This document shows positions 16,806 through 30,080 of a stretch of DNA of 64,000 nucleotides, piece by piece. This DNA comes from a candidate division LCP-89 bacterium B3_LCP (lineage in GTDB: Bacteria > Electryoneota > B3-LCP). The notes under the pieces are model-generated. The model was not told where the DNA came from and did no database searches. It worked only from the letters and a program-made list of their open reading frames with translations. The position numbers and the translations under genes are program-made. Position 1 is the stretch's first letter. Every line of letters starts with the position of its first letter. Where the stretch lies: contig NJBN01000006.1 in NCBI GenBank assembly GCA_005223185.1, forward strand, positions 62,001 to 126,000. Direction: 5' to 3'.

Positions 16806-19751
16806 ATGAGAAGGTTTACAGAAATTTTATCCATTTTACTGCTGCTGACATGTGTGATATATCTATCACCGGCTCTGGCTGCGCAGGTAAGGAGTTCGGA
16901 TACAGCAGTTTCGATCATTGAAACCAGACTTCTGGACGGAAAAAGCGATGATGTAGTAATCCAGGTTTGGGGTCCAGTGGGGCCCAATACCGAAGTGCGC
17001 TCTACACAGAAATTAATAATGAGAACGCCGGAAGCAGGTTACGTCATCTACATAGATGACTTCCCCACTGCGAACTTGTTTCATCCCGTGCGATATGCAT
17101 TTGTAAGTGAAACTGATGGCGAGGTTACGGTTAAGAACGCCCAGAGCTCACCGCTAAACTTCAGGGATTTCCATCAAGTCAAGACTGCTATTGGTGATGT
17201 GTTAGGTGCTGCTGAGAATCGCAGAGCGCCGCTGCCCAGTGGTTCACCTGATCCGACAAGGTCAGATCGTTGGGCTGTTCTGATGAATGGCGGTCATAAT
17301 CAGGGAAACAATCACGTGCGTTACTGGAATGATCTATCCAACATCTACATTGCACTCAACTGGACGTACGGTTTTGCGGATGATCACATTATCGTTCTCT
17401 GTTCTGATGGTCTAAATCCTGCACCGGATCAATCCAACGGATTAAATTCCGATCCGGATCTGGACGGTGATGGTGATGATGACATCATGTATTCCTGCAC
17501 GCTATCTGACGTGGACTTCGTCTTCGGAGAACTGGTTAACATGCTGGCGGCAGATGACAAACTCTTCATCTTCGCTACAGACCACGGCAGCAGCGTCAGC
17601 GGTTGGAGTACTCTGTTTAACCTGTGGAACATGGAATCGCTCTATGATTACCATTTCGCCTCACTGTTGGATGCCCTACCCCAGTGTGAAATCATCTGCA
17701 CCTTCGAACCTTGTTATTCTGGCGGATTTTTAGATGACATAGCAGTACCTCCGGGACCTCGCGTGGCGTCTTCTGCCTGCAGTTACGACCAGGTATCCTA
17801 TGCAATGCCGCCGGATTACATGTACGACACTTACGTATTCCACTGGACTGCGGCGGTTAAAGGCGAAGACGCTTATGGCGTACCGGTTGATGCAGACTAT
17901 AATAGTGATGGTATGGTGACCATGGATGAGGCGTTTTATTACGCGGAAACGCACGATCAGTCAAATGAAGATCCGCAGTACGCAGAGTATCCGGTGGGCA
18001 TAGGAGCAGGAATTTCATTGTGGCCCACTGGTTCAGGACCGTTCCTGGTTGTAGCCGACAAGGAAATTGACGATATTGGCGGTAACAACAACGGAGCAGC
18101 CGATCCTGGTGAAACGATTTCCATGGTGCTGACTCTAAGTAATGCAGGTAGTGGCACCGCCAGCAACATCGTCGGTACGCTCTCAACTACAGATCCCTAT
18201 CTCACAGTAACTCAGAATACAGCAACCTTCCCGGATCTGGCGCATTTTGAACAGGGTCAGGGGACTCCCCCATATCAGATCGATATAAGCAGTTCCTGCC
18301 CTCAGGGACAATCGGTAAGCTGTGATCTGCACATTGAAGCCGATAGCGCTTATACAAATGACCTGATCGTGTCCTTCATCGTGGGTGATCCGATGTACGC
18401 TCCTGTAGGACCAGATGCATACGGTTACTATGCTTACGACATTTTAGACGTTCCTCTGGGACCAACCTACGACTGGGTGGAGATCAGTGCGGATTCTGGC
18501 GGACCGGGAACTATGGTTAACTTCACTGCGGATGATCAGGTTTTCCATTTTGCACTGCCGTTTGGTTTCCAGTTTTACGGGGCTACCTATGACAGTTTCA
18601 CTGTGGCTGCCAATGGTTGGATCGGAATGGGAACCATCACCGAAGATGATTATTCCAATTCCGGAATTCCTGACGCAGACGGTCCCCCGTCCATGATAGC
18701 AATATATTGGGAAGATCTTTCTCCTCAGCGGGCAAATTCCGGGAAGGTGTGGAGTTGGTACGATGAAACCAATCACCGCCAGATCGTGGAATACAATCAC
18801 ATCGAACAGTTCGCTCCGACGGGATCCTTTGAAACTTTCCAGGTAATACTACTGGATGCGGTTTATTATCCCACAGCAACGGGTGACGGCCAAATCCTCT
18901 TCCAATATAAGGAACCTTCACCAACAGTACAGGCAGAAGGCACTATTGGAATCGAGAATTCTGCAGAGACTATCGGACTGCAGTACGTATATGATGGAGC
19001 ATACGATGAACATGCTGCTCCGATAGACAGAGGGATGGCTATCCTATTCACGGCATTAGAAGCAAATCCATTTGTGGTTGTTGAGCTATATCCAGTAAAC
19101 CCACCAATACAGATACCGGCAACTGGAGGAATATTCGGCTACAGCATCATGGTGGCAAACAATGAGGGTACCAGCCAGAATGTGGACTTGTGGATCGATG
19201 TCACCCTGCCGTCAGGTTCACCTTATGGACCGGTAGTGGGACCGTTGAACTTAACTCTCCCAGCCGGTTTTGCAAACGACAGGGATCGTGAACAGGCTGT
19301 ACCGATTAATGCTCCTGCGGGCACATATCAATACAACGCCTATTTAGGTTTGTATCCCACGCCGATATATTCGACTTCCAGCTTCGATTTTGAGAAGTTG
19401 GCTACGGGAGATGGCGAACCAGTGTCAGGATGGGCTAATTGGGGTGAGTCTTTTGAGCTGCTATCGGCAAATGAGACTGAACTACCTGATAAATTCGCCC
19501 TGCTCGGCTGCTATCCCAACCCCTTCAATCCCACGACAGTTCTCAGATTCCAGATGCCAGATGCAAGCCTGGTTAATCTGACGATTTTCGATATTTCTGG
19601 CCGAAAAGTCGCAGAATTAATCAGCGGCTGGCGGGATGCTGGGGTGCATGAAGTAACCTTTGACGGTACTGGATTGGCTTCAGGGATATATATCTACCAA
19701 CTTGATATCGGCAGCCATTCTGCTTCCAGTAAAATGGTAATGATGAAGTAA
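16806..19751 (+). CDS. Secreted caspase/legumain-like (clan CD) cysteine peptidase with C-terminal sorting domain
   Basis: 981-residue exported protein. Signal peptide about 1-26. A clan CD protease-like domain follows (about 150-400) with the probable catalytic His260 in FATDHGSS and Cys303 in FEPCYSGGF; this resembles peptidase C13. Two EF-hand/dockerin-like Asp loops are seen (DPDLDGDGDDD, DADYNSDGMVTMDE). Next come a CARDB-like beta-domain (DNNNGAADPGETI-like region near 430), a nidogen-like block (LPFGFQFYGATYDSFTVAANGW, about 590) and a sorting domain from about 900 (YPNPFNPTTVLRF ... SGIYIYQL). Start ATG has GGAG five bases upstream. Cell-surface or secreted protease; substrate unknown. 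Confidence 0.85.
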   Translation: MRRFTEILSILLLLTCVIYLSPALAAQVRSSDTAVSIIETRLLDGKSDDVVIQVWGPVGPNTEVRSTQKLIMRTPEAGYVIYIDDFPTANLFHPVRYAFVSETDGEVTVKNAQSSPLNFRDFHQVKTAIGDVLGAAENRRAPLPSGSPDPTRSDRWAVLMNGGHNQGNNHVRYWNDLSNIYIALNWTYGFADDHIIVLCSDGLNPAPDQSNGLNSDPDLDGDGDDDIMYSCTLSDVDFVFGELVNMLAADDKLFIFATDHGSSVSGWSTLFNLWNMESLYDYHFASLLDALPQCEIICTFEPCYSGGFLDDIAVPPGPRVASSACSYDQVSYAMPPDYMYDTYVFHWTAAVKGEDAYGVPVDADYNSDGMVTMDEAFYYAETHDQSNEDPQYAEYPVGIGAGISLWPTGSGPFLVVADKEIDDIGGNNNGAADPGETISMVLTLSNAGSGTASNIVGTLSTTDPYLTVTQNTATFPDLAHFEQGQGTPPYQIDISSSCPQGQSVSCDLHIEADSAYTNDLIVSFIVGDPMYAPVGPDAYGYYAYDILDVPLGPTYDWVEISADSGGPGTMVNFTADDQVFHFALPFGFQFYGATYDSFTVAANGWIGMGTITEDDYSNSGIPDADGPPSMIAIYWEDLSPQRANSGKVWSWYDETNHRQIVEYNHIEQFAPTGSFETFQVILLDAVYYPTATGDGQILFQYKEPSPTVQAEGTIGIENSAETIGLQYVYDGAYDEHAAPIDRGMAILFTALEANPFVVVELYPVNPPIQIPATGGIFGYSIMVANNEGTSQNVDLWIDVTLPSGSPYGPVVGPLNLTLPAGFANDRDREQAVPINAPAGTYQYNAYLGLYPTPIYSTSSFDFEKLATGDGEPVSGWANWGESFELLSANETELPDKFALLGCYPNPFNPTTVLRFQMPDASLVNLTIFDISGRKVAELISGWRDAGVHEVTFDGTGLASGIYIYQLDIGSHSASSKMVMMK

Positions 19752-19759
19752 TAAAATAA

Positions 19760-19790
19760 GGGGCGGCTGAAAGGTCGCCCCATTTTAATT
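19760..19790 (+). terminator. GC-rich hairpin after the first secreted-protein gene
   Basis: GGGGCGGC and GTCGCCCC pair around loop TGAAAG, followed by ATTTTAATTT. The same 22-base hairpin recurs unchanged after the next gene. With its T-rich tail this copy is a fair intrinsic terminator; its position 9 bases after the stop and just before the next ribosome site also allows an RNA-processing role. Confidence 0.7.
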
Positions 19791-19806: not shown

Positions 19807-21267
19807 ATGTACAGGATACTCGTATTGCTACTATTTGTAGGATTGTCAGTTGCAACGTCAATTCATGCTCAGCCGCCGGATACGCTGTGGACGAATACAT
19901 TCGGAGGAAGCAATGGAGATTATGGAAGAAGCGTTCAGCAGACCGTAGATGGCGGATATATCATCGCAGGATGGACTTATTCCTACGGCGCTGGCAATGC
20001 TGATGTTTATCTGATCAAGACGGACATGGCGGGCAGCGAAGTGTGGAGTCAAACCTTCGGAGGAAGTGAAGAAGATTATGGCTACAGTGTTCAGCAGACA
20101 ACCGACGGCGGCTATATCATCGTCGGAGAGACTTATACCTACAGCGCTGGTGGTAATGATGTTTATCTTATCAAGACGAACGCAGCGGGTACCGAAGAGT
20201 GGTATAAAACCTTCGGCGGAAGCTCTAATGATTATGGCTACAGCGTTCGCCAGACCATTGACGGCGGCTATATCATCGCAGGATATACTTGGTCCTACGG
20301 CGCCGGTAATACTGATGTTTATCTGATCAAGACGAACGCGGCGGGAAACGAGGTTTGGTATCAAACCTTCGGCGGAAGCTCTCATTATTATGGCCACAGC
20401 GTTCAGCAGACCACTGACGGCGGCTATATCATCGCAGGATATACTTGGTCCTACGGCGCCGGTAATACTGATGTTTATCTGATCAAGACGAACGCGGCGG
20501 GCAGCGAAGTGTGGTATCAAACCTTTGGGGAAAGCAGCAATGAAATTGGTTACAGCGTTCAGCAAACCACCGATGGTGGCTATATCATCGCAGGATTTAC
20601 TTCTTCCTACGATCCCTACGACGCTAATGTTTATCTGATCAAGACGAATGCTGCGGGCAGCGAAGTGTGGAGTCAAACCTTCGGAGGAAGCGGCGAAGAT
20701 ATTGGCAAAAGCATTCAGCAGACCACCGACGGTGGCTATATCATCGCAGGATATACTTATTCCTACGGCGCCGGTGAAAGAGATGTATATCTGCTCAAGA
20801 CGGACGCGGCGGGCAGTGAAGTGTGGAGTCAAACCTTCGGTGGAGGCGCCTATGAACATGGCTACAGTGTTCAGCAGACTGCCGACGGCGGCTATATCAT
20901 CGCAGGAAATACTATTTCCTACGGCGCCGGTGGATATGATGTTTGGTTGATTCGTGTTGATAGTGAAGGCACCTATGTTGAAAGTTCAATGCCTAATCAG
21001 CCTCTCAGTTTCAGCCTGCTAGGCTGTTATCCAAACCCCTTCAACCCCACGACAGTTCTCAGATTCCAGTTGCAAGATGCAAGTAAGGTGAATCTGGCGA
21101 TTTTCGATATTTCGGGACGGAAAGTGGTAGAACTTATAAACGGCTGGCGGGATGCTGGGGTGCATGAGGTTACCTTTAATGGATCAGGATTAGCTTCAGG
21201 AATATATATCTACCAGCTTCATGCTGGAGGCTTCACAGCTTCTGGTAAAATGGTACTGATGAAGTGA
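19807..21267 (+). CDS. Secreted seven-repeat propeller-like protein with C-terminal sorting domain
   Basis: 486-residue exported protein. Signal peptide about 1-21 (ends SIHAQ). Residues about 31-394 are seven tandem 52-residue repeats of the form TFGGSxxDYGxSVQQTxDGGYIIAG ending in DVYLIKTxAxGxEVW. The count of seven fits a closed beta-propeller; each repeat supplies one blade. A sorting domain follows from about 405 (CYPNPFNPTTVLRFQ...). AAAAGGAGG stands before the ATG. There is no catalytic motif; a binding or adhesive surface role is inferred. At DNA level some units are almost identical. Confidence 0.85.
   Translation: MYRILVLLLFVGLSVATSIHAQPPDTLWTNTFGGSNGDYGRSVQQTVDGGYIIAGWTYSYGAGNADVYLIKTDMAGSEVWSQTFGGSEEDYGYSVQQTTDGGYIIVGETYTYSAGGNDVYLIKTNAAGTEEWYKTFGGSSNDYGYSVRQTIDGGYIIAGYTWSYGAGNTDVYLIKTNAAGNEVWYQTFGGSSHYYGHSVQQTTDGGYIIAGYTWSYGAGNTDVYLIKTNAAGSEVWYQTFGESSNEIGYSVQQTTDGGYIIAGFTSSYDPYDANVYLIKTNAAGSEVWSQTFGGSGEDIGKSIQQTTDGGYIIAGYTYSYGAGERDVYLLKTDAAGSEVWSQTFGGGAYEHGYSVQQTADGGYIIAGNTISYGAGGYDVWLIRVDSEGTYVESSMPNQPLSFSLLGCYPNPFNPTTVLRFQLQDASKVNLAIFDISGRKVVELINGWRDAGVHEVTFNGSGLASGIYIYQLHAGGFTASGKMVLMK
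19897..20988 (+). repeat. Seven in-frame 156-bp tandem repeats
   Basis: Unit starts fall every 156 bases (for example 19897, 20053, 20209), each coding 52 residues. Units three and four share long runs of identical DNA (GGATATACTTGGTCCTACGG and onward), showing recent duplication or correction between units. All remain in frame inside the propeller gene. Confidence 0.9.
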
Positions 21268-21275
21268 CAAATTAA

Positions 21276-21297
21276 GGGGCGGCTGAAAGGTCGCCCC
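21276..21297 (+). terminator. Copy two of the GC-rich intergenic hairpin
   Basis: Same GGGGCGGC/TGAAAG/GTCGCCCC hairpin as after the previous gene, but followed by TGTTCGTTAATC, a poor T-tract. It may terminate weakly or act as a 3'-end stabiliser. Confidence 0.5.
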
Positions 21298-21322: not shown

Positions 21323-23200
21323 ATGTTCAGAAATATCTTGATTGTTCTTACTCAAGGATTGCTGGTAGCTTCAATCGCTTCAGCTCAGACAATTATTCCC
21401 GGAGGGCATGTCTCCGGCATCTGGGATACTGCAGGTTCTCCTTACATGATCGAAGGAAATATCACTATTCCTAGTAGTGAAACTCTTATTGTTGACCCCG
21501 GCGTTGAAGTCTATTTTCAGGGACGGTATGAGTGGATGGTCAATGGCTGGCTGGAAGCCATTGGAACAGTAACCGATTCAATTCTCATAACAGCTCAGGA
21601 TACCAGCAATCGCTGGTTAGGAATTACCTTCGATAGTGCACCCGATAGCAGTTATCTTGAATATTGCATCATTGAATATACAACCTATATCTACCCTACA
21701 GCACAGTGCGGCGGCATAGTCTGTGGCCAGTCTACGGTCATCTCCCACTGCACCATCAGGTTCAATATCGGCTTTGAAGGCGCTGCGATCGGTTGCGGGG
21801 GCAGTTCGAGAATTACCCACAATGACATTATTTACAACGGGAGTGAAGCGCAAACGAAGCAGGGTGGCGGTATCCTCATAGGGGGTGGTTCACCCATTAT
21901 TATGTTCAACAACATAAGTGAAAATATTGCTTACTGTGAGGGCGGAGGAATCTGGATGGATAAGGGCTGTGATGCCATGATTAAAGGAAACTACATCACT
22001 GGTAACACTGTGAGCTCCAGCCATGCTCATGGAGGTGGTATCTATTGTTCAGGCTATTCTTCTCCTACTATGATAATAAGTGAGAACATTATTGTCGGTA
22101 ATACAGCAATAGCTAACTGCTTTGCCAGGGGGGGAGGACTTTGCGGTGGTGACATGAATATCGGTAAAAACACTATCTATAATAATTCCGCTAGGGGCTA
22201 CGACACCGTTTATGGGGGAGGAATTTGCACTTATGTAATGGGCAATACTGTCACCAGTTCGATCTTTTGGAGTAATTCTCCAGATCAAATTTATAGCTAT
22301 GGCTCTACTAGTGGAGTAACCTATTCTGACATTCAAGATGGTTGGCCTGGGATCGGCAACATTGCTGAAAACCCCATGTTCATCAATCCTGAATTGTACG
22401 ACTTTCGCCTCCAATGGGGCTCCCCCTGCATCGATGCGGGCGATCCTGATCCTCAGTATAACGATGCGGACGGCACAAGAGCAGATATGGGGGCATTTTA
22501 CTATGATCAGAGCATCCCGGTGCGGGTACTGTCAACGCGGCACGATTGGTCGATTGTCATCCCTCCCGAGGGTGACAGTTTCGAATACACACTCACTTTT
22601 ACCTGTATAGATCCGCAAGCACCGCGGTTTACTACCTGGATGGATGTAACTCTGCCGAATGGCACTATCTTCGGACCAGTTATGGGTCCGGTCGAAGCGG
22701 AACTGGATTCGGGTGTAACGGTCCGTCGCGAGAGGACGCAAGTGGTACCGGCAGGCGCCGAAAGGGGTCTTTATTCTTATAACTCCTACGCTGTCGTTGA
22801 GTCGGACACTTCCTTCGACAGTTTCGAATTCTTCAAACTCGGTTCGGACGGATCGGATGGGAAATCAGGTTGGACGAATACAGGTGAACCATTAGATTTC
22901 TCGATTTATGATGAACATCAAAGTTCCATACTACCTGAAGAGTACAAGTTATTTAGTGTGTTTCCCAACCCCTTCAATCCAAATACAGTTATTAGTTTCG
23001 AGTTGCGAGTTTCGAGTTTAGTAAACCTCGCAATCTACGACATCTCCGGCCGTCTGGTAGCCGAACTTGTCAACGGCTGGCGTGATGCGGGAACCCACGA
23101 AGTAACTTTCGATGGATCAAACCTGGCTTCTGGAATATATATCTACCAGCTTGATGCTGGAGGCTTCACAGCTTCTGGTAAAATGGTGATGATGAAGTAA
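21323..23200 (+). CDS. Secreted parallel beta-helix protein with C-terminal sorting domain
   Basis: 625-residue exported protein. Signal peptide about 1-21 (ends ASAQT). A right-handed beta-helix follows (about 90-340) made of PbH1-type rungs such as GGGIYCSGYSSPTMIISENIIVGNTA. It closes with the typical NPMFINPELYDFRLQWGSPCIDAGDPDP stretch, then a beta-sandwich (about 400-510) and the sorting domain (FPNPFNPNTVISFEL...). Start has GGGGAGG upstream. Such helices bind or cut polysaccharides in other proteins, but no catalytic residues can be assigned. The last 120-bp block is shared exactly with the next gene. Confidence 0.86.
   Translation: MFRNILIVLTQGLLVASIASAQTIIPGGHVSGIWDTAGSPYMIEGNITIPSSETLIVDPGVEVYFQGRYEWMVNGWLEAIGTVTDSILITAQDTSNRWLGITFDSAPDSSYLEYCIIEYTTYIYPTAQCGGIVCGQSTVISHCTIRFNIGFEGAAIGCGGSSRITHNDIIYNGSEAQTKQGGGILIGGGSPIIMFNNISENIAYCEGGGIWMDKGCDAMIKGNYITGNTVSSSHAHGGGIYCSGYSSPTMIISENIIVGNTAIANCFARGGGLCGGDMNIGKNTIYNNSARGYDTVYGGGICTYVMGNTVTSSIFWSNSPDQIYSYGSTSGVTYSDIQDGWPGIGNIAENPMFINPELYDFRLQWGSPCIDAGDPDPQYNDADGTRADMGAFYYDQSIPVRVLSTRHDWSIVIPPEGDSFEYTLTFTCIDPQAPRFTTWMDVTLPNGTIFGPVMGPVEAELDSGVTVRRERTQVVPAGAERGLYSYNSYAVVESDTSFDSFEFFKLGSDGSDGKSGWTNTGEPLDFSIYDEHQSSILPEEYKLFSVFPNPFNPNTVISFELRVSSLVNLAIYDISGRLVAELVNGWRDAGTHEVTFDGSNLASGIYIYQLDAGGFTASGKMVMMK
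22963..23082 (+). repeat. 120-bp block identical to 25511-25630
   Basis: Covers the sorting-domain segment from PNPFNPNTV to NGW. By direct comparison all 120 bases match the block in the next gene, while flanking bases diverge at once. Such sharp limits suggest gene conversion between the paralogous gene ends. Confidence 0.9.
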
Positions 23201-23212
23201 AGAATATAATAG

Positions 23213-23234
23213 GGGGCGGCTTTCAGTTCGCCCC
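23213..23234 (+). terminator. Copy three (variant) of the GC-rich intergenic hairpin
   Basis: GGGGCG and CGCCCC arms around GCTTTCAGTT, the loop altered from the first two copies, followed by TGTTAATTC. Weak T-tract. Confidence 0.5.
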
Positions 23235-23264
23235 TGTTAATTCAATACAAGTACGGAGGTTATC

Positions 23265-25748
23265 ATGAGAAAGCTACTATCTACTTTAGTCTGCTTAATT
23301 GTACTATATCCAGCAGTTGTTTTTGCAGACTTCATATTTGTCTCAGGTGAGACAACCGGTATCTGGTCAGCAGATACCATCTTAGTGGTAGGAGACGTTC
23401 GTGTACCGCAAGAGGATTCTCTGCTCATCGAACCGGGTGTGAAGGTACTGTTCGCAATGGATTGTTGTATACTTGTGGATACCAATGCTACACTAACGGC
23501 GATTGGCACAGAAACCGAGCCCATCCTCTTCGATCAATACCAACCACTGGTTCACATGAAAGGGCTAAGGCTCTGGTATGCGTCATCCCGCACTCAATTA
23601 CAATACTGTACGTTTAAGCGGGGTCATGCTACCGGTGGAGGTTCAGATAACAACGGCGGCGCTATTTACTGCTATCACACCAATCCCACCATTACCAACT
23701 GCATAATCGACAGTTGCGTTGCGAGTAGCTCAGGAGGGGCGATATACTGTGATAATGCCAGCCCAACCATCAGCTATAATGAAATAATAAGAAATTCAGC
23801 TAACGACGGCGGTGCTATTTATTGTTATTATTCATCGCCGGTGATCTCGGAGAACGTCATCATAGAGAATGGATGTAGTAGTCTTGCTGCCGGAATATAC
23901 TGTAATAATTCAGATGCAACCATTTTGGGAAATACTATTCAGGATAATATTTCCGGGAATGACGTCGGTGGAATATACTGCACTAATAGTGACGGTACAG
24001 TAATCAATGGCAACAATATCAGCGGTAACTCAGCTCAGGATGATTGCGGTGGGGTATATTTCTATAATTCCGATGTAACCCTGAGTGAAAATATCATCCA
24101 AGGCAATTCCGCGTGGGACCATTGTGGTGGTATTTACTGCGATGATAGTGAAGCCATTATCACCGGTAATTACATAAGTTCCAACACTTCTAATGACAAC
24201 TCAGGCGGAATCTACATCGAAGGCTCCCCAAGCCCGATATTAACAAATAACACGATAACCTTAAATTATTCAGGTAATTACTGTGGCGGCATTTATTGTA
24301 ATAGTGCTGCAAAGATATGCGGTAACATAATCAGTGAAAATTCCTCCCTCCGCAGCGGTGCAGGGATTTACCTTAACGGTCAGGAGGCTATAATAGAAAA
24401 CAATGATATCACTACCAATTTCGTCGCCAATGCACTTGAATACGATGGTGGTGGCATCTATGTCAATGGCAATAACAACACGATTGTTGGCAATACAATC
24501 CGCTTTAATTTAGCCCGTTACGGCGGTGGTATCTACTTCAACAATAATGCTGATGGACTGGTTTTGACTGGAAATGAAGTCAGTTTGAATATCGCTTCCA
24601 GGGGTGGAGGTTTTTACTTCAATGATCTGGAAGACTGCCAAATTGAAAACAATACAGTCATTCAAAACGAGGCTGTGTACGGTGGGGCTTTCTACTTCAC
24701 CAATTTCAATTCGTTCGTGTTCAATAACACCATCTACAGCAATACCGCCGACCGTGGCGCTGCCGTTTACAGCATCGATTCGGACCCCCAGTTGATCAAC
24801 TGCATCATCTGGGATCATTACGATTACCAGATTTACCTGGTCTATTCACCGGGTTTCTCAATCACCTACTCTGACATTCAGGGAGGCTGGTTCGGCGTGG
24901 GCAATATCGATGCGGAACCCGCCTTCATCAATACTCAGCAGAATGATTTTCGGCTTCAGTGGGGATCACCCTGTATCGATGTTGGACATCCCCATGTCCG
25001 CTTGATAGATCCTGATAGCACCCAATCGGATATGGGAGCCTTTTTCTACGATCAGAGCCACCTCGTTCGCATTCTGTTGACGCCATATTCAGCCCCAATT
25101 CAGATACCCGCAGCAGGTGGCAATTTCACCTATGATATAATCCTCACCAACATTGGTGTTGACACACTGGAGGCTTCGGTTTCGTGCGAAGTAACCCTGC
25201 CAAACGGAAACCAGCATGGACCGGTTTACGGACCAGTTAATGAAGTAATTCCTCCCGGTGAGACCATCATCCAGAACCGAATTCAGGACGTTCCGGAATA
25301 TGCTCCAATAGGATCATACTCATACCATGGTGCGGCAGCAGTTGGGGGAAATACCTCCTATGATAGATTCGGCTTTAAAAAGGCAGGTTCAGGCAACAGC
25401 ATTACATCAGGTATAGGTGGATGGTCAAACTGGACGACGGACATCGGCAGCATTCAAGGCTACCAGGCTGATCAAACATCACCACTAACCTACGCACTCC
25501 ATCAGAACTATCCCAACCCCTTCAATCCAAATACAGTTATTAGTTTCGAGTTGCGAGTTTCGAGTTTAGTAAACCTCGCAATCTACGACATCTCCGGCCG
25601 TCTGGTAGCCGAACTTGTCAACGGCTGGCGGGATGCGGGTGTGCATGAGGTGACGTTTGATGGGTCGGACTTGGCTTCGGGGATATATTTTGCACGACTT
25701 GAGGTGGGTGATATCAGCATGACTAAAAAGATGATGCTTATAAAATGA
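23265..25748 (+). CDS. Large secreted parallel beta-helix protein with C-terminal sorting domain
   Basis: 827-residue exported protein. Signal peptide about 1-23 (ends VVFAD). A long right-handed beta-helix (about 110-540) shows more than a dozen rungs of about 22-26 residues with Asn/Gly/Cys-rich turns (GGIYCTNSDGTVINGNNISGN and relatives). It ends with the DFRLQWGSPCIDVGHPHV closing strand, a beta-sandwich (about 600-715) and the sorting domain. ACGGAGG lies before the ATG. The 3' end is a mosaic: 25511-25630 matches the upstream gene and 25611-25690 matches the downstream peptidase gene. Function unknown; surface binding likely. Confidence 0.86.
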   Translation: MRKLLSTLVCLIVLYPAVVFADFIFVSGETTGIWSADTILVVGDVRVPQEDSLLIEPGVKVLFAMDCCILVDTNATLTAIGTETEPILFDQYQPLVHMKGLRLWYASSRTQLQYCTFKRGHATGGGSDNNGGAIYCYHTNPTITNCIIDSCVASSSGGAIYCDNASPTISYNEIIRNSANDGGAIYCYYSSPVISENVIIENGCSSLAAGIYCNNSDATILGNTIQDNISGNDVGGIYCTNSDGTVINGNNISGNSAQDDCGGVYFYNSDVTLSENIIQGNSAWDHCGGIYCDDSEAIITGNYISSNTSNDNSGGIYIEGSPSPILTNNTITLNYSGNYCGGIYCNSAAKICGNIISENSSLRSGAGIYLNGQEAIIENNDITTNFVANALEYDGGGIYVNGNNNTIVGNTIRFNLARYGGGIYFNNNADGLVLTGNEVSLNIASRGGGFYFNDLEDCQIENNTVIQNEAVYGGAFYFTNFNSFVFNNTIYSNTADRGAAVYSIDSDPQLINCIIWDHYDYQIYLVYSPGFSITYSDIQGGWFGVGNIDAEPAFINTQQNDFRLQWGSPCIDVGHPHVRLIDPDSTQSDMGAFFYDQSHLVRILLTPYSAPIQIPAAGGNFTYDIILTNIGVDTLEASVSCEVTLPNGNQHGPVYGPVNEVIPPGETIIQNRIQDVPEYAPIGSYSYHGAAAVGGNTSYDRFGFKKAGSGNSITSGIGGWSNWTTDIGSIQGYQADQTSPLTYALHQNYPNPFNPNTVISFELRVSSLVNLAIYDISGRLVAELVNGWRDAGVHEVTFDGSDLASGIYFARLEVGDISMTKKMMLIK
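25511..25690 (+). repeat. Mosaic sorting-domain end shared with both neighbours
   Basis: Bases 25511-25630 are identical to 22963-23082 (120 bp) and 25611-25690 to 29919-29998 (80 bp). The two blocks overlap by 20 bases over the conserved NGW region, so the crossover lies there. Confidence 0.9.
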
Positions 25749-25829
25749 GTGCTGAATAAGAATTCTACGGGTTAATCACTATTAAATCGTAATAGCCGGG
25801 CTACCAGAAATAATAATGTGAGGTGTATT

Positions 25830-28800
25830 ATGTCGAATACAACAGATCTGCAATACTTCTGGAAGAAAAGTCTTTCAATTACCACACTATTGGCTGCTTT
25901 ATGCGTTTTCCTAATGGTGAAACAACCAGTATACGCAGATATCATCACATTCGAGGATAACTGGGCAGAAGGTGGAATTAACCTCGTCAGTCAGAATATG
26001 ACAGGCGTGGACATCGTCTTTTCCATACCAAGAATGGAAGTTGTGGAGGTTGATATCAATGGGGAAAGGATGCAGACTGTGGCAATTCCCGGCGTTATTT
26101 TGCCAAATGAAGCAGGAGCGCCTGATCTTCCCTGCATTAGCCGCTTTATCGCCATTCCGCAAGGATCCCGGGTTCGATGTGAAATTGTTGAATCCCGTAT
26201 CGAAGTGCTGCCAAACATGAACATCGCGCCGGCTTATGAGATTCCCCGCGATGACAGCCGATCTGTGTTGAAATATGAAAAAAATCCGGAAATCTACGAC
26301 CAGAATGTGTTTTATCCTGAGGAAGTAGTCAGAATCAGTGGTAAGAAACAGATGCGTGGAGTGGATGTCGTCATCGTGAGCATCACTCCCTTCCAATTCA
26401 ATCCCGTGAGCAAAGATTTACGCATCTACAAGGATATTAGGATGCGCATTGATTTCGTTGGTGGCAGCGGCTATTTCGGTGAAGACAGGCTGCGCAGCCG
26501 CTGGTGGGAACCGGTGTTGCAGCAAAATTTAATTAACTACGCTTCATTACCAAAAGTCGACTTTGATCGAAGGAACCAGATCGATGAGGATAATGTCGAA
26601 TATATTATCATTGTGCCCGATCATCCCGTATACATTGCCTGGGCTGATACCCTAAAACGATGGCGCAATGAACAGGGCATTCTAACCGGAATTACAACTA
26701 TTGGAGAAATCGGCGGCAACGATTCGGTGCTCATTGAGGATTACATTAACGACGCCTACACTAACTGGGAAATTCCGCCCGTAGCTGTGTTGTTATTCAG
26801 CGATTATAGCGATCCATATCTCTTTGGTATCTGCGCTCCGCATTATTTTTATGATGACAGCACGTTAGTCTGTGTATCCGATAATTTCTACGCCGACGTG
26901 GATAATGATAGCCTACCAGACCTCACAATCGCCCGTATTTGCACTCCCGGCGGCGATGATACGCTACCAGCAATAATTATTACGAAAATATTAGATTACG
27001 AACGCCAACCCTATACAAATCCATATTTTTACCAAAATCCGCTTTTATCCGGCGGCTGGCAAACCAGTCGCTGGTTTCTCCTCTTCACTGAAGTTCTCTA
27101 TGGTTATTTTGCCAACCAACAGGGCAAAACTCCGGTTCGTGAATATGATGTATATATATATCCCGGGCCAGGTACAATCTGGTCAACTGCCACTAACACC
27201 AGCACGGTTGTTAATTATTTCGGACCGCTGCCGTGGGGTTTGAATTATATTTCGTCAACTCCGTCCTATCTGGCCAGCATGATGACGGGCACGACTGCCG
27301 GAATCACCAATGCGATAAACAACGGTGCTTTTTTCGCCTTACACCGAGATCACGGAATTGACACCTCGTGGGTGACACCCTGGTATCCCAAATCCATAGT
27401 CGCCGGATTGACCAATCCCATGCATCCTTATGTCTTTTCGCTGAATTGTTCTACCGGGCGCTTTGACGCCGGTTCTCCCGGTTTAGCTGAAGTGTTTCAG
27501 ATGATTCCTAACGGAGGCGTGGGTATCATGGCGCCATCCGGAACTTCTTTCTCTTTCGTAAATGATACGTTCGGCTGGGGCGTTTTCGATTCGATGTGGC
27601 CTGACTTCGATCCTCTCTACGGGACGGATCCGGTCGGGGAACCCATTTTACGGCCTGCATTCGCCAATGTCAGCGGTAAATTCTACCTTGAAGCTTCTAG
27701 CTGGCCCAACAATCCAAACAGAAAAGCCGACACCTACTTTCTCTTCCATCATCTGGGTGATGCGTTCACTACTATTTATTCCGAAGTGCCTGAAAGTCTT
27801 ACAGTAGCTCATGACAGCACGATTCCTTACGGCACAACCTCCTTCAATGTAACGGCAAATGCCAGTTCTCTGATTGGTCTAAGCCTCGATGGAGAAATGA
27901 TCGGCAGTGCCAACGGAACAGGAGTACCTGTTAATTTCACACTTCCTGATCTTATACCGGGTGATACGGTCAGGGTTACGGTTACCAAGGCTAACTATTT
28001 TCGTTATATCACCGATGTGCCCGTGCCCGGTACCGCAATATTTGAAGGAGATGTAACCGGAGTATGGGCGGATTCCACTTCGCCGTATTATATTTTCGGT
28101 GAGATCACGGTGGCCAGTTCGAATGATACATTATGGATTGAACCGGGTGTAGAGGTTCTCTTCCAGGGGCACTATAAACTGAATGTGGAAGGTACTCTCT
28201 TCGCGATAGGAACGGAAACCGATTCGATTTTATTCACCGCCACGGATACTACCGAAGGCTGGCATGGTATACGGTTTATAGCTGGCTATCAAAGTAACCT
28301 TTCATACTGCATCATCCAGTATGGAAAGGCTTCAGGACCTTCGATGGATAGTTACGGAGGTGGTATTTACAGTAATGTTTATCCCGGTCCGAGTATTACT
28401 CACTGTACTATCCGGTGGAATTCGGCCAATAGCGGTGCAGGTGGTGGTATTTATTGCAGGGACACGGACGCCATAATAAGCTACAGCAGTATCATTGAGA
28501 ATTCAGCTCTGGATGGTGGTGGTATCGGCTGTATGGGGGATCCAATCATCAGTCATTGCATGATTACAAGGAATTCGGTTCTTCCTACTTCTACCGGCGG
28601 CGGCGGTGGAATTTTCTGTGTGCTTGTTCCAGTCCCCTCGATCTCTAATTGCACAATTACTGGAAATTCAGCACCTGGGAATGGCGGTGGAATTAGTTGC
28701 TTTTCTACAGAACCCTTTAATATCGTGAATACAATCGTGGAAGGTAATTCAGGCGGTGGTATCCGTTTTATAAATTGCTACAATATTGGAGTGTCCTATG

Positions 28801-30080
28801 GTGATTTTTACAATAATGCGGGTGGCGATTTCACCGGCGAGGTACCGCCAGGTTTGGGTGTGATAAATGCTGTCAATACCAATGGTGATTCCTGCGACAC
28901 ATTCTCTAACATCTTCCTCGATCCGCGTTTCCTTTACCCTACCGCCGATAATTATAATTTAAGTTCGAATTCGCCTTGCATCGATGCCGGCAACCCAAAT
29001 TCGCCCTCAGATCCGGACAGCACTGTAGCGGATATCGGTGCATTGTTCTACGACCAACTCTCGCCAGCACCCAATTGTTCAGTATCAACGGCCCTGGTGG
29101 ATTTTGGAGAGGTAATCATCGGTAACCAGCTAAATTTACCTCTCACCATTTACAACCAAGGATCTGTAATGCTGGTTATATACGACATTGCCACAAGTGA
29201 ACCTTCGTTTACTACTGACTTTAATCCGGCGGACAGTCTCATCAACCCAGGAAACTCATTGCTGGTTACGGTCTCGTTTTCTCCCGGAATAACTGCAATT
29301 TATGATGATGTTTTAGTGGTTTACAACAACGACAAACGGATGGATGTGCAACTGCAGGGCACTGGTGTATCTCTGGTGCAGGTCATATTAATGCCGGAAA
29401 ATCCGCCTATAACCGTCCCTTCCTCGGGGGGAAGTTTCGGCTTCGATATCAGCTGTGTCAATCACGCCACAAGTTCCATGAATTTCGATATCTGGACGGA
29501 CATAACCAAGACCAATGGACAGCTTACGCCTCCTTTAATCGGCCCGCTGAACCTCACCTTCTCTGCGGGAGATTCCATCGGTCGGGGACGGACTCAAAAC
29601 GTTCCCGGATTCGCTCCACCCGGACTCTATTCCTATAATGCCTATGTTGGCAACTATCCGGATTCAGTTGGGAGCAGTGATTCGTTCACGTTTGAAAAAC
29701 TCGAGACTGGGGAAGGAGAACTTATTAACGATTGGAACAATACCGGCGAGAGCTTTGGCCAATGGTTATCCGAGTTGACTACTCCAATACCAGACAGATT
29801 CGCTTTGCATGTCGCCCACCCCAACCCCTTCAATCCCACGACAGTTCTCAGATTCCAGTTGCAAGATGCAAGTTTGGTGAAGCTGTCGGTTTACGATATT
29901 TCGGGACGGAAAGTGGTAGAACTTGTCAACGGCTGGCGGGATGCGGGTGTGCATGAGGTGACGTTTGATGGGTCGGACTTGGCTTCGGGGATATATTTGT
30001 ATCGTCTGGAAGCGTCAGGGTCAGGGGCGCCCCCGACTACGGAATACATAGCATCAGGGAAGATGGTGATGGTCAAATAA
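25830..30080 (+). CDS. Gingipain-like (C25) peptidase fused to a beta-helix, with C-terminal sorting domain
   Basis: About 1416 residues. Signal segment about 13-37, a propeptide-like region, then a peptidase C25 domain (about 250-630) with probable catalytic His508 in ALHRDHG and Cys540 in SLNCSTG. Next are an Ig-like domain (about 650-725), a PbH1 beta-helix (about 760-1075), an ASPM/SPD2/Hydin-like domain (LVDFGEVIIGNQLNLPLTIYN), a beta-sandwich and the sorting domain. ATG 25830 is chosen because GAGGTG lies just before it; the frame is open to GTG 25818. C25 enzymes such as gingipain and PorU act with the type IX system; substrate here is unknown. Confidence 0.87.
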   Translation: MSNTTDLQYFWKKSLSITTLLAALCVFLMVKQPVYADIITFEDNWAEGGINLVSQNMTGVDIVFSIPRMEVVEVDINGERMQTVAIPGVILPNEAGAPDLPCISRFIAIPQGSRVRCEIVESRIEVLPNMNIAPAYEIPRDDSRSVLKYEKNPEIYDQNVFYPEEVVRISGKKQMRGVDVVIVSITPFQFNPVSKDLRIYKDIRMRIDFVGGSGYFGEDRLRSRWWEPVLQQNLINYASLPKVDFDRRNQIDEDNVEYIIIVPDHPVYIAWADTLKRWRNEQGILTGITTIGEIGGNDSVLIEDYINDAYTNWEIPPVAVLLFSDYSDPYLFGICAPHYFYDDSTLVCVSDNFYADVDNDSLPDLTIARICTPGGDDTLPAIIITKILDYERQPYTNPYFYQNPLLSGGWQTSRWFLLFTEVLYGYFANQQGKTPVREYDVYIYPGPGTIWSTATNTSTVVNYFGPLPWGLNYISSTPSYLASMMTGTTAGITNAINNGAFFALHRDHGIDTSWVTPWYPKSIVAGLTNPMHPYVFSLNCSTGRFDAGSPGLAEVFQMIPNGGVGIMAPSGTSFSFVNDTFGWGVFDSMWPDFDPLYGTDPVGEPILRPAFANVSGKFYLEASSWPNNPNRKADTYFLFHHLGDAFTTIYSEVPESLTVAHDSTIPYGTTSFNVTANASSLIGLSLDGEMIGSANGTGVPVNFTLPDLIPGDTVRVTVTKANYFRYITDVPVPGTAIFEGDVTGVWADSTSPYYIFGEITVASSNDTLWIEPGVEVLFQGHYKLNVEGTLFAIGTETDSILFTATDTTEGWHGIRFIAGYQSNLSYCIIQYGKASGPSMDSYGGGIYSNVYPGPSITHCTIRWNSANSGAGGGIYCRDTDAIISYSSIIENSALDGGGIGCMGDPIISHCMITRNSVLPTSTGGGGGIFCVLVPVPSISNCTITGNSAPGNGGGISCFSTEPFNIVNTIVEGNSGGGIRFINCYNIGVSYGDFYNNAGGDFTGEVPPGLGVINAVNTNGDSCDTFSNIFLDPRFLYPTADNYNLSSNSPCIDAGNPNSPSDPDSTVADIGALFYDQLSPAPNCSVSTALVDFGEVIIGNQLNLPLTIYNQGSVMLVIYDIATSEPSFTTDFNPADSLINPGNSLLVTVSFSPGITAIYDDVLVVYNNDKRMDVQLQGTGVSLVQVILMPENPPITVPSSGGSFGFDISCVNHATSSMNFDIWTDITKTNGQLTPPLIGPLNLTFSAGDSIGRGRTQNVPGFAPPGLYSYNAYVGNYPDSVGSSDSFTFEKLETGEGELINDWNNTGESFGQWLSELTTPIPDRFALHVAHPNPFNPTTVLRFQLQDASLVKLSVYDISGRKVVELVNGWRDAGVHEVTFDGSDLASGIYLYRLEASGSGAPPTTEYIASGKMVMVK
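29919..29998 (+). repeat. 80-bp block identical to 25611-25690
   Basis: Covers ELVNGWRDAGVHEVTFDGSD and the SGIY segment of the sorting domain. Direct comparison gives 80 of 80 matches, with mismatches starting immediately on both sides. Confidence 0.9.

What the first reader, a model, noticed from the sequence alone, without database searches (positions are those of the whole stretch)
22963..30080. Sorting-domain gene ends are mosaics of perfectly shared DNA blocks
Seen directly: 22963-23082 equals 25511-25630 over 120 bp, and 25611-25690 equals 29919-29998 over 80 bp, with divergence starting at once on both sides. The 3' end of the gene at 23265 is thus a join of its upstream and downstream neighbours, with the switch inside a 20-bp overlap. 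The gene at 19807 also shares exact stretches of 31-39 bp with the one at 25830. This suggests that the C-terminal sorting domain spreads or is kept uniform by gene conversion, so new cargo may be fitted with the export tag by recombination.
Basis: partly seen in the sequence, partly recalled or inferred. Interest (0 to 1): 0.72.

Follow-up and report, generated by a model that had tools for sequence, protein, structure and literature searches.

The report
Export tags swap DNA, host hairpin repeats
In this uncultured bacterium the short C-terminal export tag carried by more than 200 genes is patched together from pieces exchanged between neighbouring genes on the same strand, and it is also essentially the only protein-coding sequence in the genome in which a family of tiny mobile hairpin repeats sits in frame, so a secretion signal has become a hot zone of recombination and repeat insertion.

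Summary
The exact blocks of 120, 80, 39 and 31 bp lie where stated, inside the C-terminal T9SS sorting domains of five consecutive same-strand genes, and the switch falls in a 20-bp overlap. They are far beyond chance. I compared 203 tags of the genome. Same-strand tags under 10 kb apart share exact runs of 40 nt or more in 21 of 239 pairs, against 0 of 45 opposite-strand neighbours, 8 of 17,953 pairs on different contigs, and 0.39 expected by permutation. Fifteen of 43 same-strand clusters show it. The effect decays with distance and also occurs between tags on unrelated cargo. Local recombination between directly repeated tags is well supported. Genome-wide homogenisation is not (mean tag identity 53%), and fitting new cargo with a tag is not shown. 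Less expected: three families of GTAG-type REP palindromes, two with flanked RAYT genes, sit in frame in two loops of these tags. Of 82 genomic REP places 38 are inside tags (about 2 expected) and essentially none is in any other convincing gene. Gene 25818 carries one at about 30014-30040. The same loop holds the same REPs in two other genera. A new variant of known kinds.

The parts
16806..19751 (+). gene 1: 981 aa, Peptidase_C13-like region, C-terminal sorting tag (about 19512-19748)
   Evidence: TIGR04183 35.8 bits, cut-off 23; PF18962, PF01650
19807..21267 (+). gene 2: 486 aa, delta-60/SBBP-type repeats (156-bp unit) plus sorting tag
   Evidence: TIGR02608, TIGR04183 40.2 bits
21323..23200 (+). 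gene 3: 625 aa, beta-helix/NosD-like cargo plus sorting tag
23265..25748 (+). gene 4: 827 aa, right-handed beta-helix cargo plus sorting tag; its tag joins the two shared blocks
25818..30080 (+). gene 5: 1420 aa (alternative ATG at 25830), C25 peptidase with propeptide, beta-helix, Ig-like domain and sorting tag
22963..23082 (+). block A copy 1 (120 bp, identical to 25511-25630)
   Evidence: p=0.00025
25511..25630 (+). block A copy 2; contains heptamer-type repeat TTTCGAGTTGCGAGTTTCGAG
25611..25690 (+). block B copy 1 (80 bp, identical to 29919-29998); overlaps block A by 20 bp
29919..29998 (+). block B copy 2
29820..29873 (+). gene 5 tag start: 39-bp exact matches to gene 1 (29820-29858 = 19515-19553) and gene 2 (29835-29873 = 21046-21084)
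29894..29924 (+). 31-bp exact match to gene 2 (21105-21135)
21221..21254 (+). 34-bp exact match to gene 3 (23154-23187)
30014..30040 (+). in-frame GTAG-type REP palindrome (family C, reads out as SGSGAPPTT) in the last beta-hairpin loop of the gene 5 tag (site II); foot CTAC at 30036-30039
   Evidence: (C4:92014); loop 91-97 in model

Best explanation
The five genes encode type IX secretion cargo that share a type-A C-terminal sorting domain of about 88 aa. Because a tag ends each gene of a same-strand run, the run is a string of short direct repeats a few kb apart. Recombination between misaligned neighbouring tags (short gene-conversion tracts or template switching, probably bounded by short DNA anchors shared by many tags, such as CCCAAYCCCTTCAA = NPFN, GTCAACGGCTGGCGGG = VNGWRDAG and AAGATGGTGTTGATGAA = KMVLMK) copies 30-150 bp pieces from tag to tag. 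The tag of gene 23265 therefore matches its upstream neighbour on one side of a 20-bp anchor and its downstream neighbour on the other. Shown: exact blocks, sharp edges, same-strand and short-distance dependence, recurrence in 15 clusters. Inferred: conversion or template switching as the chemistry, and anchors as tract ends. A second, separate process acts on the same DNA: RAYT-associated GTAG REP palindromes have inserted repeatedly, in frame, in two loops of the tag.
For: Exact blocks; tags at all five gene ends; T9SS present: SprA 2117-aa frame and several PorV-family genes. Exact run >=40 nt: 21/239 near same-strand pairs, 0/45 near opposite-strand, 8/17,953 different contigs; permutation null mean 0.39, maximum 4 in 2,000; without REP-bearing tags 17 against 0.28; 15 of 43 clusters. 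Codon-run test conditioned on pair similarity: p<0.001 in 24/329 same-strand pairs under 20 kb, 0/90 opposite-strand, 9/1,500 different contigs; share with p<0.01 falls 25%, 17%, 11%, 4% with distance. Runs >=30 nt between tags without cargo homology: 11/140 against 25/12,674. Other-genus relatives: runs >=40 nt in 3/17 near same-strand pairs against 2/430 (Fisher p=0.0004). Anchors.
Against: Direction of transfer and donor/recipient roles could not be set; no same-genus genome was found. 125 of 329 near same-strand pairs have cargo homology (genes 3-4: 33% over 493 aa; genes 4-5: 37% over 251 aa), so part of the signal is old tandem duplication. The orientation contrast is significant overall (p=0.007 for runs >=30, 0.03 for >=40) but not in the no-homology subset alone (0.125), as opposite-strand neighbours are few. 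Pairs within a cluster are not independent. The relatives test used stretches chosen for REPs, and REPs inflate shared runs there.
Confidence: 0.78

Rival explanations
1. Tandem duplication of whole tagged genes followed by faster divergence of the cargo; the tags look alike because they are younger copies under stronger constraint, with no exchange.
For: 125 of 329 near same-strand pairs have detectable cargo homology; one pair (C12_146477/148244) is identical over 500 bp including 188 bp beyond the end of the coding sequence, a plain recent duplication.
Against: Sharing is in blocks: the codon-run test is conditional on each pair's overall similarity and on column conservation and still gives p<0.001 in 7.3% of near same-strand pairs against 0.6% of distant ones. 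Pairs without cargo homology show it. The gene 4 tag matches different neighbours on the two sides of one 20-bp point.
Confidence: 0.12
2. Codon-level selection or mutation bias makes tags converge on the same codons.
For: Some tag motifs are strongly conserved in DNA across the genome (CCCAATCCCTTCAA in 50 of 226 tags).
Against: Selection would not depend on strand or distance; sharing does. Identity over 120 bp (39 codons) exceeds every run seen in 17,953 different-contig pairs, of which only three reach 60 nt and the longest is 106 nt.
Confidence: 0.03
3. The blocks record capture of the tag by newly arrived cargo: a gene inserted in the cluster received its 3' end by copying a neighbour's tag.
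For: Neighbours with unrelated cargo share tag blocks; blocks in several pairs run to or past the stop codon (for example C16_119272/122482 to +3 and C7_439028/442920 to +3).
Against: In this window the shared blocks start at the NPFN motif or further inside the tag, and both genes have full tags outside them, so they replaced part of an existing tag; no untagged orthologue was found to show a before-state.
Confidence: 0.07

Closest known systems
T9SS type A sorting domain (TIGR04183 / PF18962 Por_Secre_tail)
   Same: All five proteins score above cut-off at their extreme C-terminus; the genome has SprA and PorV-family genes.
   Different: At least 203 tags in one 3.8 Mb genome, with block exchange and in-frame REP inserts in two loops, which I found reported nowhere in the library.
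Domain rearrangement and allelic exchange in P. gingivalis surface proteins (PMC5266723)
   Same: Recombination reshuffles parts of T9SS-exported surface proteins.
   Different: There the exchanged parts are alleles and adhesin/catalytic domains compared between strains; here it is the sorting tag itself, exchanged among non-allelic neighbours in one genome.
GTAG REPs and RAYTs / REPtrons (PMC3733652, PMC2817692, PMC8266576)
   Same: Perfect palindromes with a GTAG foot, dispersed copies, and a RAYT gene flanked by inverted copies of the same REP (C18:282928-283468; NF047646 97 bits over cut-off 80).
   Different: REPs are mostly extragenic, and intragenic ones were reported in varied genes, many for replication and repair. 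Here intragenic copies are confined to one domain family, at two fixed loops.
Rickettsia palindromic elements (RPEs)
   Same: Palindromic repeats inserted in frame in coding sequences and read as short peptides (as cited in PMC3733652).
   Different: RPEs occur in many unrelated genes; here only in sorting tags, with RAYT genes present.

Membership tests
T9SS type A sorting domain (TIGR04183) | HMM score above the curated cut-off | tested here: met
   32.1-41.4 bits against 23 in all five
T9SS type A sorting domain (TIGR04183) | At the extreme C-terminus of an exported protein | tested here: met
   domain ends within a few residues of the stop in four genes; in gene 5 the match ends 20 residues short because of the insert
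T9SS type A sorting domain (TIGR04183) | Genome encodes the T9SS translocon | tested here: met
   SprA 2117-aa open frame, 819 bits with neighbours; nine PorV-family hits over cut-off
T9SS type A sorting domain (TIGR04183) | Tag directs secretion and is cleaved or attached | not testable with these tools
   needs an experiment; no cultured strain known
Gene-conversion tract | Exact tract with sharp edges inside diverged homologues | tested here: met
Gene-conversion tract | Both partner genes retained, exchange between non-allelic copies | tested here: met
   genes 3, 4 and 5 all intact open frames
Gene-conversion tract | Non-reciprocal transfer with identifiable donor | tested here: inconclusive
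   no relative of the same genus; polarity not set
GTAG REP | Short palindrome with GTAG at one foot | tested here: met
   GTAGGGGCGAGGCATGCCTCGCC, GTAGGGGTCGGTCTTGCGCCGACCC, GTAGTCGGGGTCGCCCCTGACCCCGAC
GTAG REP | Many dispersed copies | tested here: met
   7 + 28 + 47 places in this genome, reversed control 0
GTAG REP | Cognate RAYT flanked by inverted REPs | tested here: met
   family B: RAYT over cut-off between inverted copies. Family C: a shorter RAYT, 79.3 bits against cut-off 80. Family A: none found
GTAG REP | Extragenic location | tested here: not met
   38 of 82 places in frame inside tags; so these are intragenic REPs, a known but minor class

The most novel reading that the evidence does not exclude
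The sorting tag is a preferred target of the REP/RAYT system, and REPs and tags have co-evolved: REP insertion at two fixed loops, at the linker before the tag (seen in G003) and just behind the stop codon could diversify tags, seed recombination between them, or even move tag segments as REP-bounded cassettes onto new cargo.
Probability: 0.12. Interest if true: 0.85.

Novelty: new variant of a known kind. Interest (0 to 1): 0.6.

Why it matters
Lineages with hundreds of T9SS cargo raise the question of how one sorting domain came to sit on so many unrelated proteins and how the copies stay functional. Strand- and distance-dependent block exchange gives a measurable process, local recombination between tags used as direct repeats, which also predicts duplication and loss of the cargo gene between two tags. 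Confinement of in-frame REPs to two loops of this domain is a natural experiment in which parts of the sorting signal tolerate foreign peptides, and it offers a system for asking whether RAYT insertion is targeted or merely filtered by selection.

Tried and rejected
Genome-collection search for relatives gave one usable contig (record titled 'Candidatus Eisenbacteria bacterium', 47% identity), too far for polarity. Heptamer repeats (TTTCGAG/TTGCGAG) as a separate mobile element: of 21 places most lie in tags, two lie directly after a tag stop codon and one (C4:158353) lies outside any tag; left open. GTAG already present at the uninserted site as a target: GTA codon 48/165 at that V against 274/1,437 over all V codons counted in uninserted tags, a modest excess, not claimed as mechanism. 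PDB sequence search: no hit. Foldseek with the modest model (pLDDT 74, pTM 0.64): no match under 0.001; best are FlgD hook-cap and a DUF3244 protein, in keeping with the weak FlgD_ig Pfam hits; used only to place the loops. Literature searches found no paper joining RAYT/REP with T9SS, or gene conversion with sorting tags apart from PMC5266723; the library is incomplete.
Full report
WHAT IS IN THE WINDOW. Five consecutive + strand genes (16806-19751, 19807-21267, 21323-23200, 23265-25748, 25818-30080) each end in a T9SS type A sorting domain (TIGR04183 and PF18962) on different cargo: a C13-like peptidase, a delta-60/SBBP-type repeat protein, two beta-helix proteins and a gingipain-type C25 peptidase. 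The genome (3.79 Mb, 18 contigs) has at least 150 scored matches to TIGR04183, the listing being capped with 338 first-look candidates. It also has SprA and several PorV-family genes, so a T9SS is present.

THE OBSERVATION. Two more short blocks link genes 1-5 and genes 2-3. The switch point of the gene 4 tag is the 20-mer GAACTTGTCAACGGCTGGCG. The core of this region, GTCAACGGCTGGCG, occurs in 21 of 226 tags, and AACGGCTGGCGGGATGCGGG in 17.

IS IT MORE THAN CHANCE? I took stretches around all listed tag hits, found 203 C-terminal tags and compared all pairs on a codon alignment. Mean identity is 53%. Same-strand pairs are more alike the closer they are (62% under 3 kb, 60% at 3-6 kb, 59% at 6-10 kb, 55% at 10-20 kb, then background); opposite-strand neighbours are at background at every distance. 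Exact runs of 40 nt or more: 21/239 near same-strand, 0/45 near opposite-strand, 8/17,953 different contigs. Shuffling tags over positions gives 0.39 on average and never more than 4 in 2,000 shuffles; leaving out REP-bearing tags gives 17 against 0.28; 15 of 43 same-strand clusters are involved. A run test in codon units, with column-specific match probabilities and a per-pair relatedness term, gives p<0.001 in 24/329 same-strand pairs under 20 kb, 0/90 opposite-strand and 9/1,500 distant pairs, and the window's two main pairs are at the floor.

DUPLICATION OR EXCHANGE? 125 of 329 near same-strand pairs have cargo homology, including genes 3-4 and 4-5, so tandem duplication is part of the history. 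It cannot be all of it: tags on cargo with no detectable homology still share long runs (>=30 nt 11/140 against 25/12,674), and the excess clusters in blocks after overall similarity is allowed for. The simplest reading is recombination between tags as direct repeats. The lack of signal in opposite-strand pairs favours template switching or direct-repeat recombination over orientation-blind conversion, but there are only 45 such pairs under 10 kb. Direction is unknown: relatives in the same family are other genera at about 55% protein identity.

WHERE THE EVIDENCE LED: REPS IN THE TAGS. Several tags hold in-frame inserts at two places. The inserts are palindromes of three main families: A GGCGAGGCATGCCTCGCC, B GGGTCGGTCTTGCGCCGACCC, C GTCGGGGTCAGGGGCGACCCCGAC. 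Genome-wide they occur at 7, 28 and 47 places (reversed-pattern control 0). I fetched every place: 7/7, 17/28 and 14/47 lie inside tags. Tags are at most 2.4% of the genome, so about 2 of 82 are expected; P is about 1e-39 (this treats places as independent, which copies spread by tag exchange are not). Outside tags, the places called 'other ORF' are short frames, the RAYT itself, or (C18:148155) a stretch upstream of the likely true start. In the tag set not chosen for REPs, 23 of 207 tags carry one.

ANATOMY OF THE INSERTS. Site I follows the motif [FY]D.xGRxV, in the beta-hairpin before G-H-x-I/V-T-F; site II is the last beta-hairpin loop before GKMVLMK (residues 91-97 of the gene 5 model). 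Site I holds seven arrangements: B+ (12 tags), B- (4), A then C (4), A (3), A then B- (3), C (2) and a longer fourth palindrome (1); site II holds C in one orientation (8 tags). Peptides read VGVGLAPTR, VGSAQDRPLR, VGARHASP, SGSGATPTT. On a quick 67-column tag tree without these columns, presence at site I needs at least 10 changes and site II 7; recombination blurs that tree. Four neighbouring genes at C16:99-108 kb carry the same B+ insert, so some copies were spread by tag exchange or duplication.

THE MOBILE SOURCE. Two copies of family B, inverted, flank a REP-associated tyrosine transposase at C18:283068-283370 (NF047646, 97 bits over a cut-off of 80), and two copies of family C flank a shorter one at C18:285179-285358 (79.3 bits, just under). 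With the GTAG foot this matches the published REPtron (PMC3733652; PMC8266576). That these RAYTs moved the copies now in tags is inference.

CONSERVATION. In two other genera of the family (G001, G003) the same REPs sit in frame in the same tag loop (3 of 6 family A places in G001, and 8 and 3 family B places in G001 and G003, one of the G001 cases being at a loop nearer the C-terminus). In G003 family A copies more often lie within about 100 bp behind the tag's stop codon or in the linker before the tag (GEACLAPT). So REP association with tags is a family-wide habit, not an accident of one assembly.

HOW THE TWO FIT. The window's shared blocks do not contain the REP of gene 5, and the block signal survives removal of REP-bearing tags, so REPs are not needed for exchange. 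I think the tag is a many-copy, loop-tolerant, 3'-terminal module that both recombines and accumulates in-frame REPs because most insertions elsewhere in genes are purged. Targeting by RAYT is possible but unproven (one search gives only a weak hint).

Noticed in passing
30014-30040: Gene 5 tag contains an in-frame, slightly decayed GTAG-type REP of family C (SGSGAPPTT), one of 38 REP places inside tags in this genome.
   Followed up: yes
G000 C18:282928-283468 and C18:285021-285433 (L103): Two RAYT genes flanked by inverted copies of REP families B and C, the likely mobilisers of the repeats found in tags.
   Followed up: partly
22996-23016, 25544-25564 and 17 of 226 tags: Heptamer-type repeat TTTCGAGTTGCGAGTTTCGAG within tags; a second one, TTGCAAGATGCAAG, in 33 tags. 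Two genomic copies begin exactly after a tag's stop codon (C9:139452, C18:297004).
   Followed up: partly
19930-21009: Gene 2 cargo is built of 156-bp (52-aa) units, with an 87-bp exact repeat (20259-20345 = 20415-20501), so recombination between repeats also acts inside cargo.
   Followed up: no
19757-19781 and 21273-21297: Identical 25-bp hairpin (TAAGGGGCGGCTGAAAGGTCGCCCC) just after the stop codons of genes 1 and 2, terminator-like and also similar to REPs.
   Followed up: no
L191:1423 and 1743 (G003): A tag bracketed by two family A type REPs, one in the linker before the tag and one 38 bp after the stop; would fit a REP-bounded tag cassette, but only one clear case was seen.
   Followed up: no
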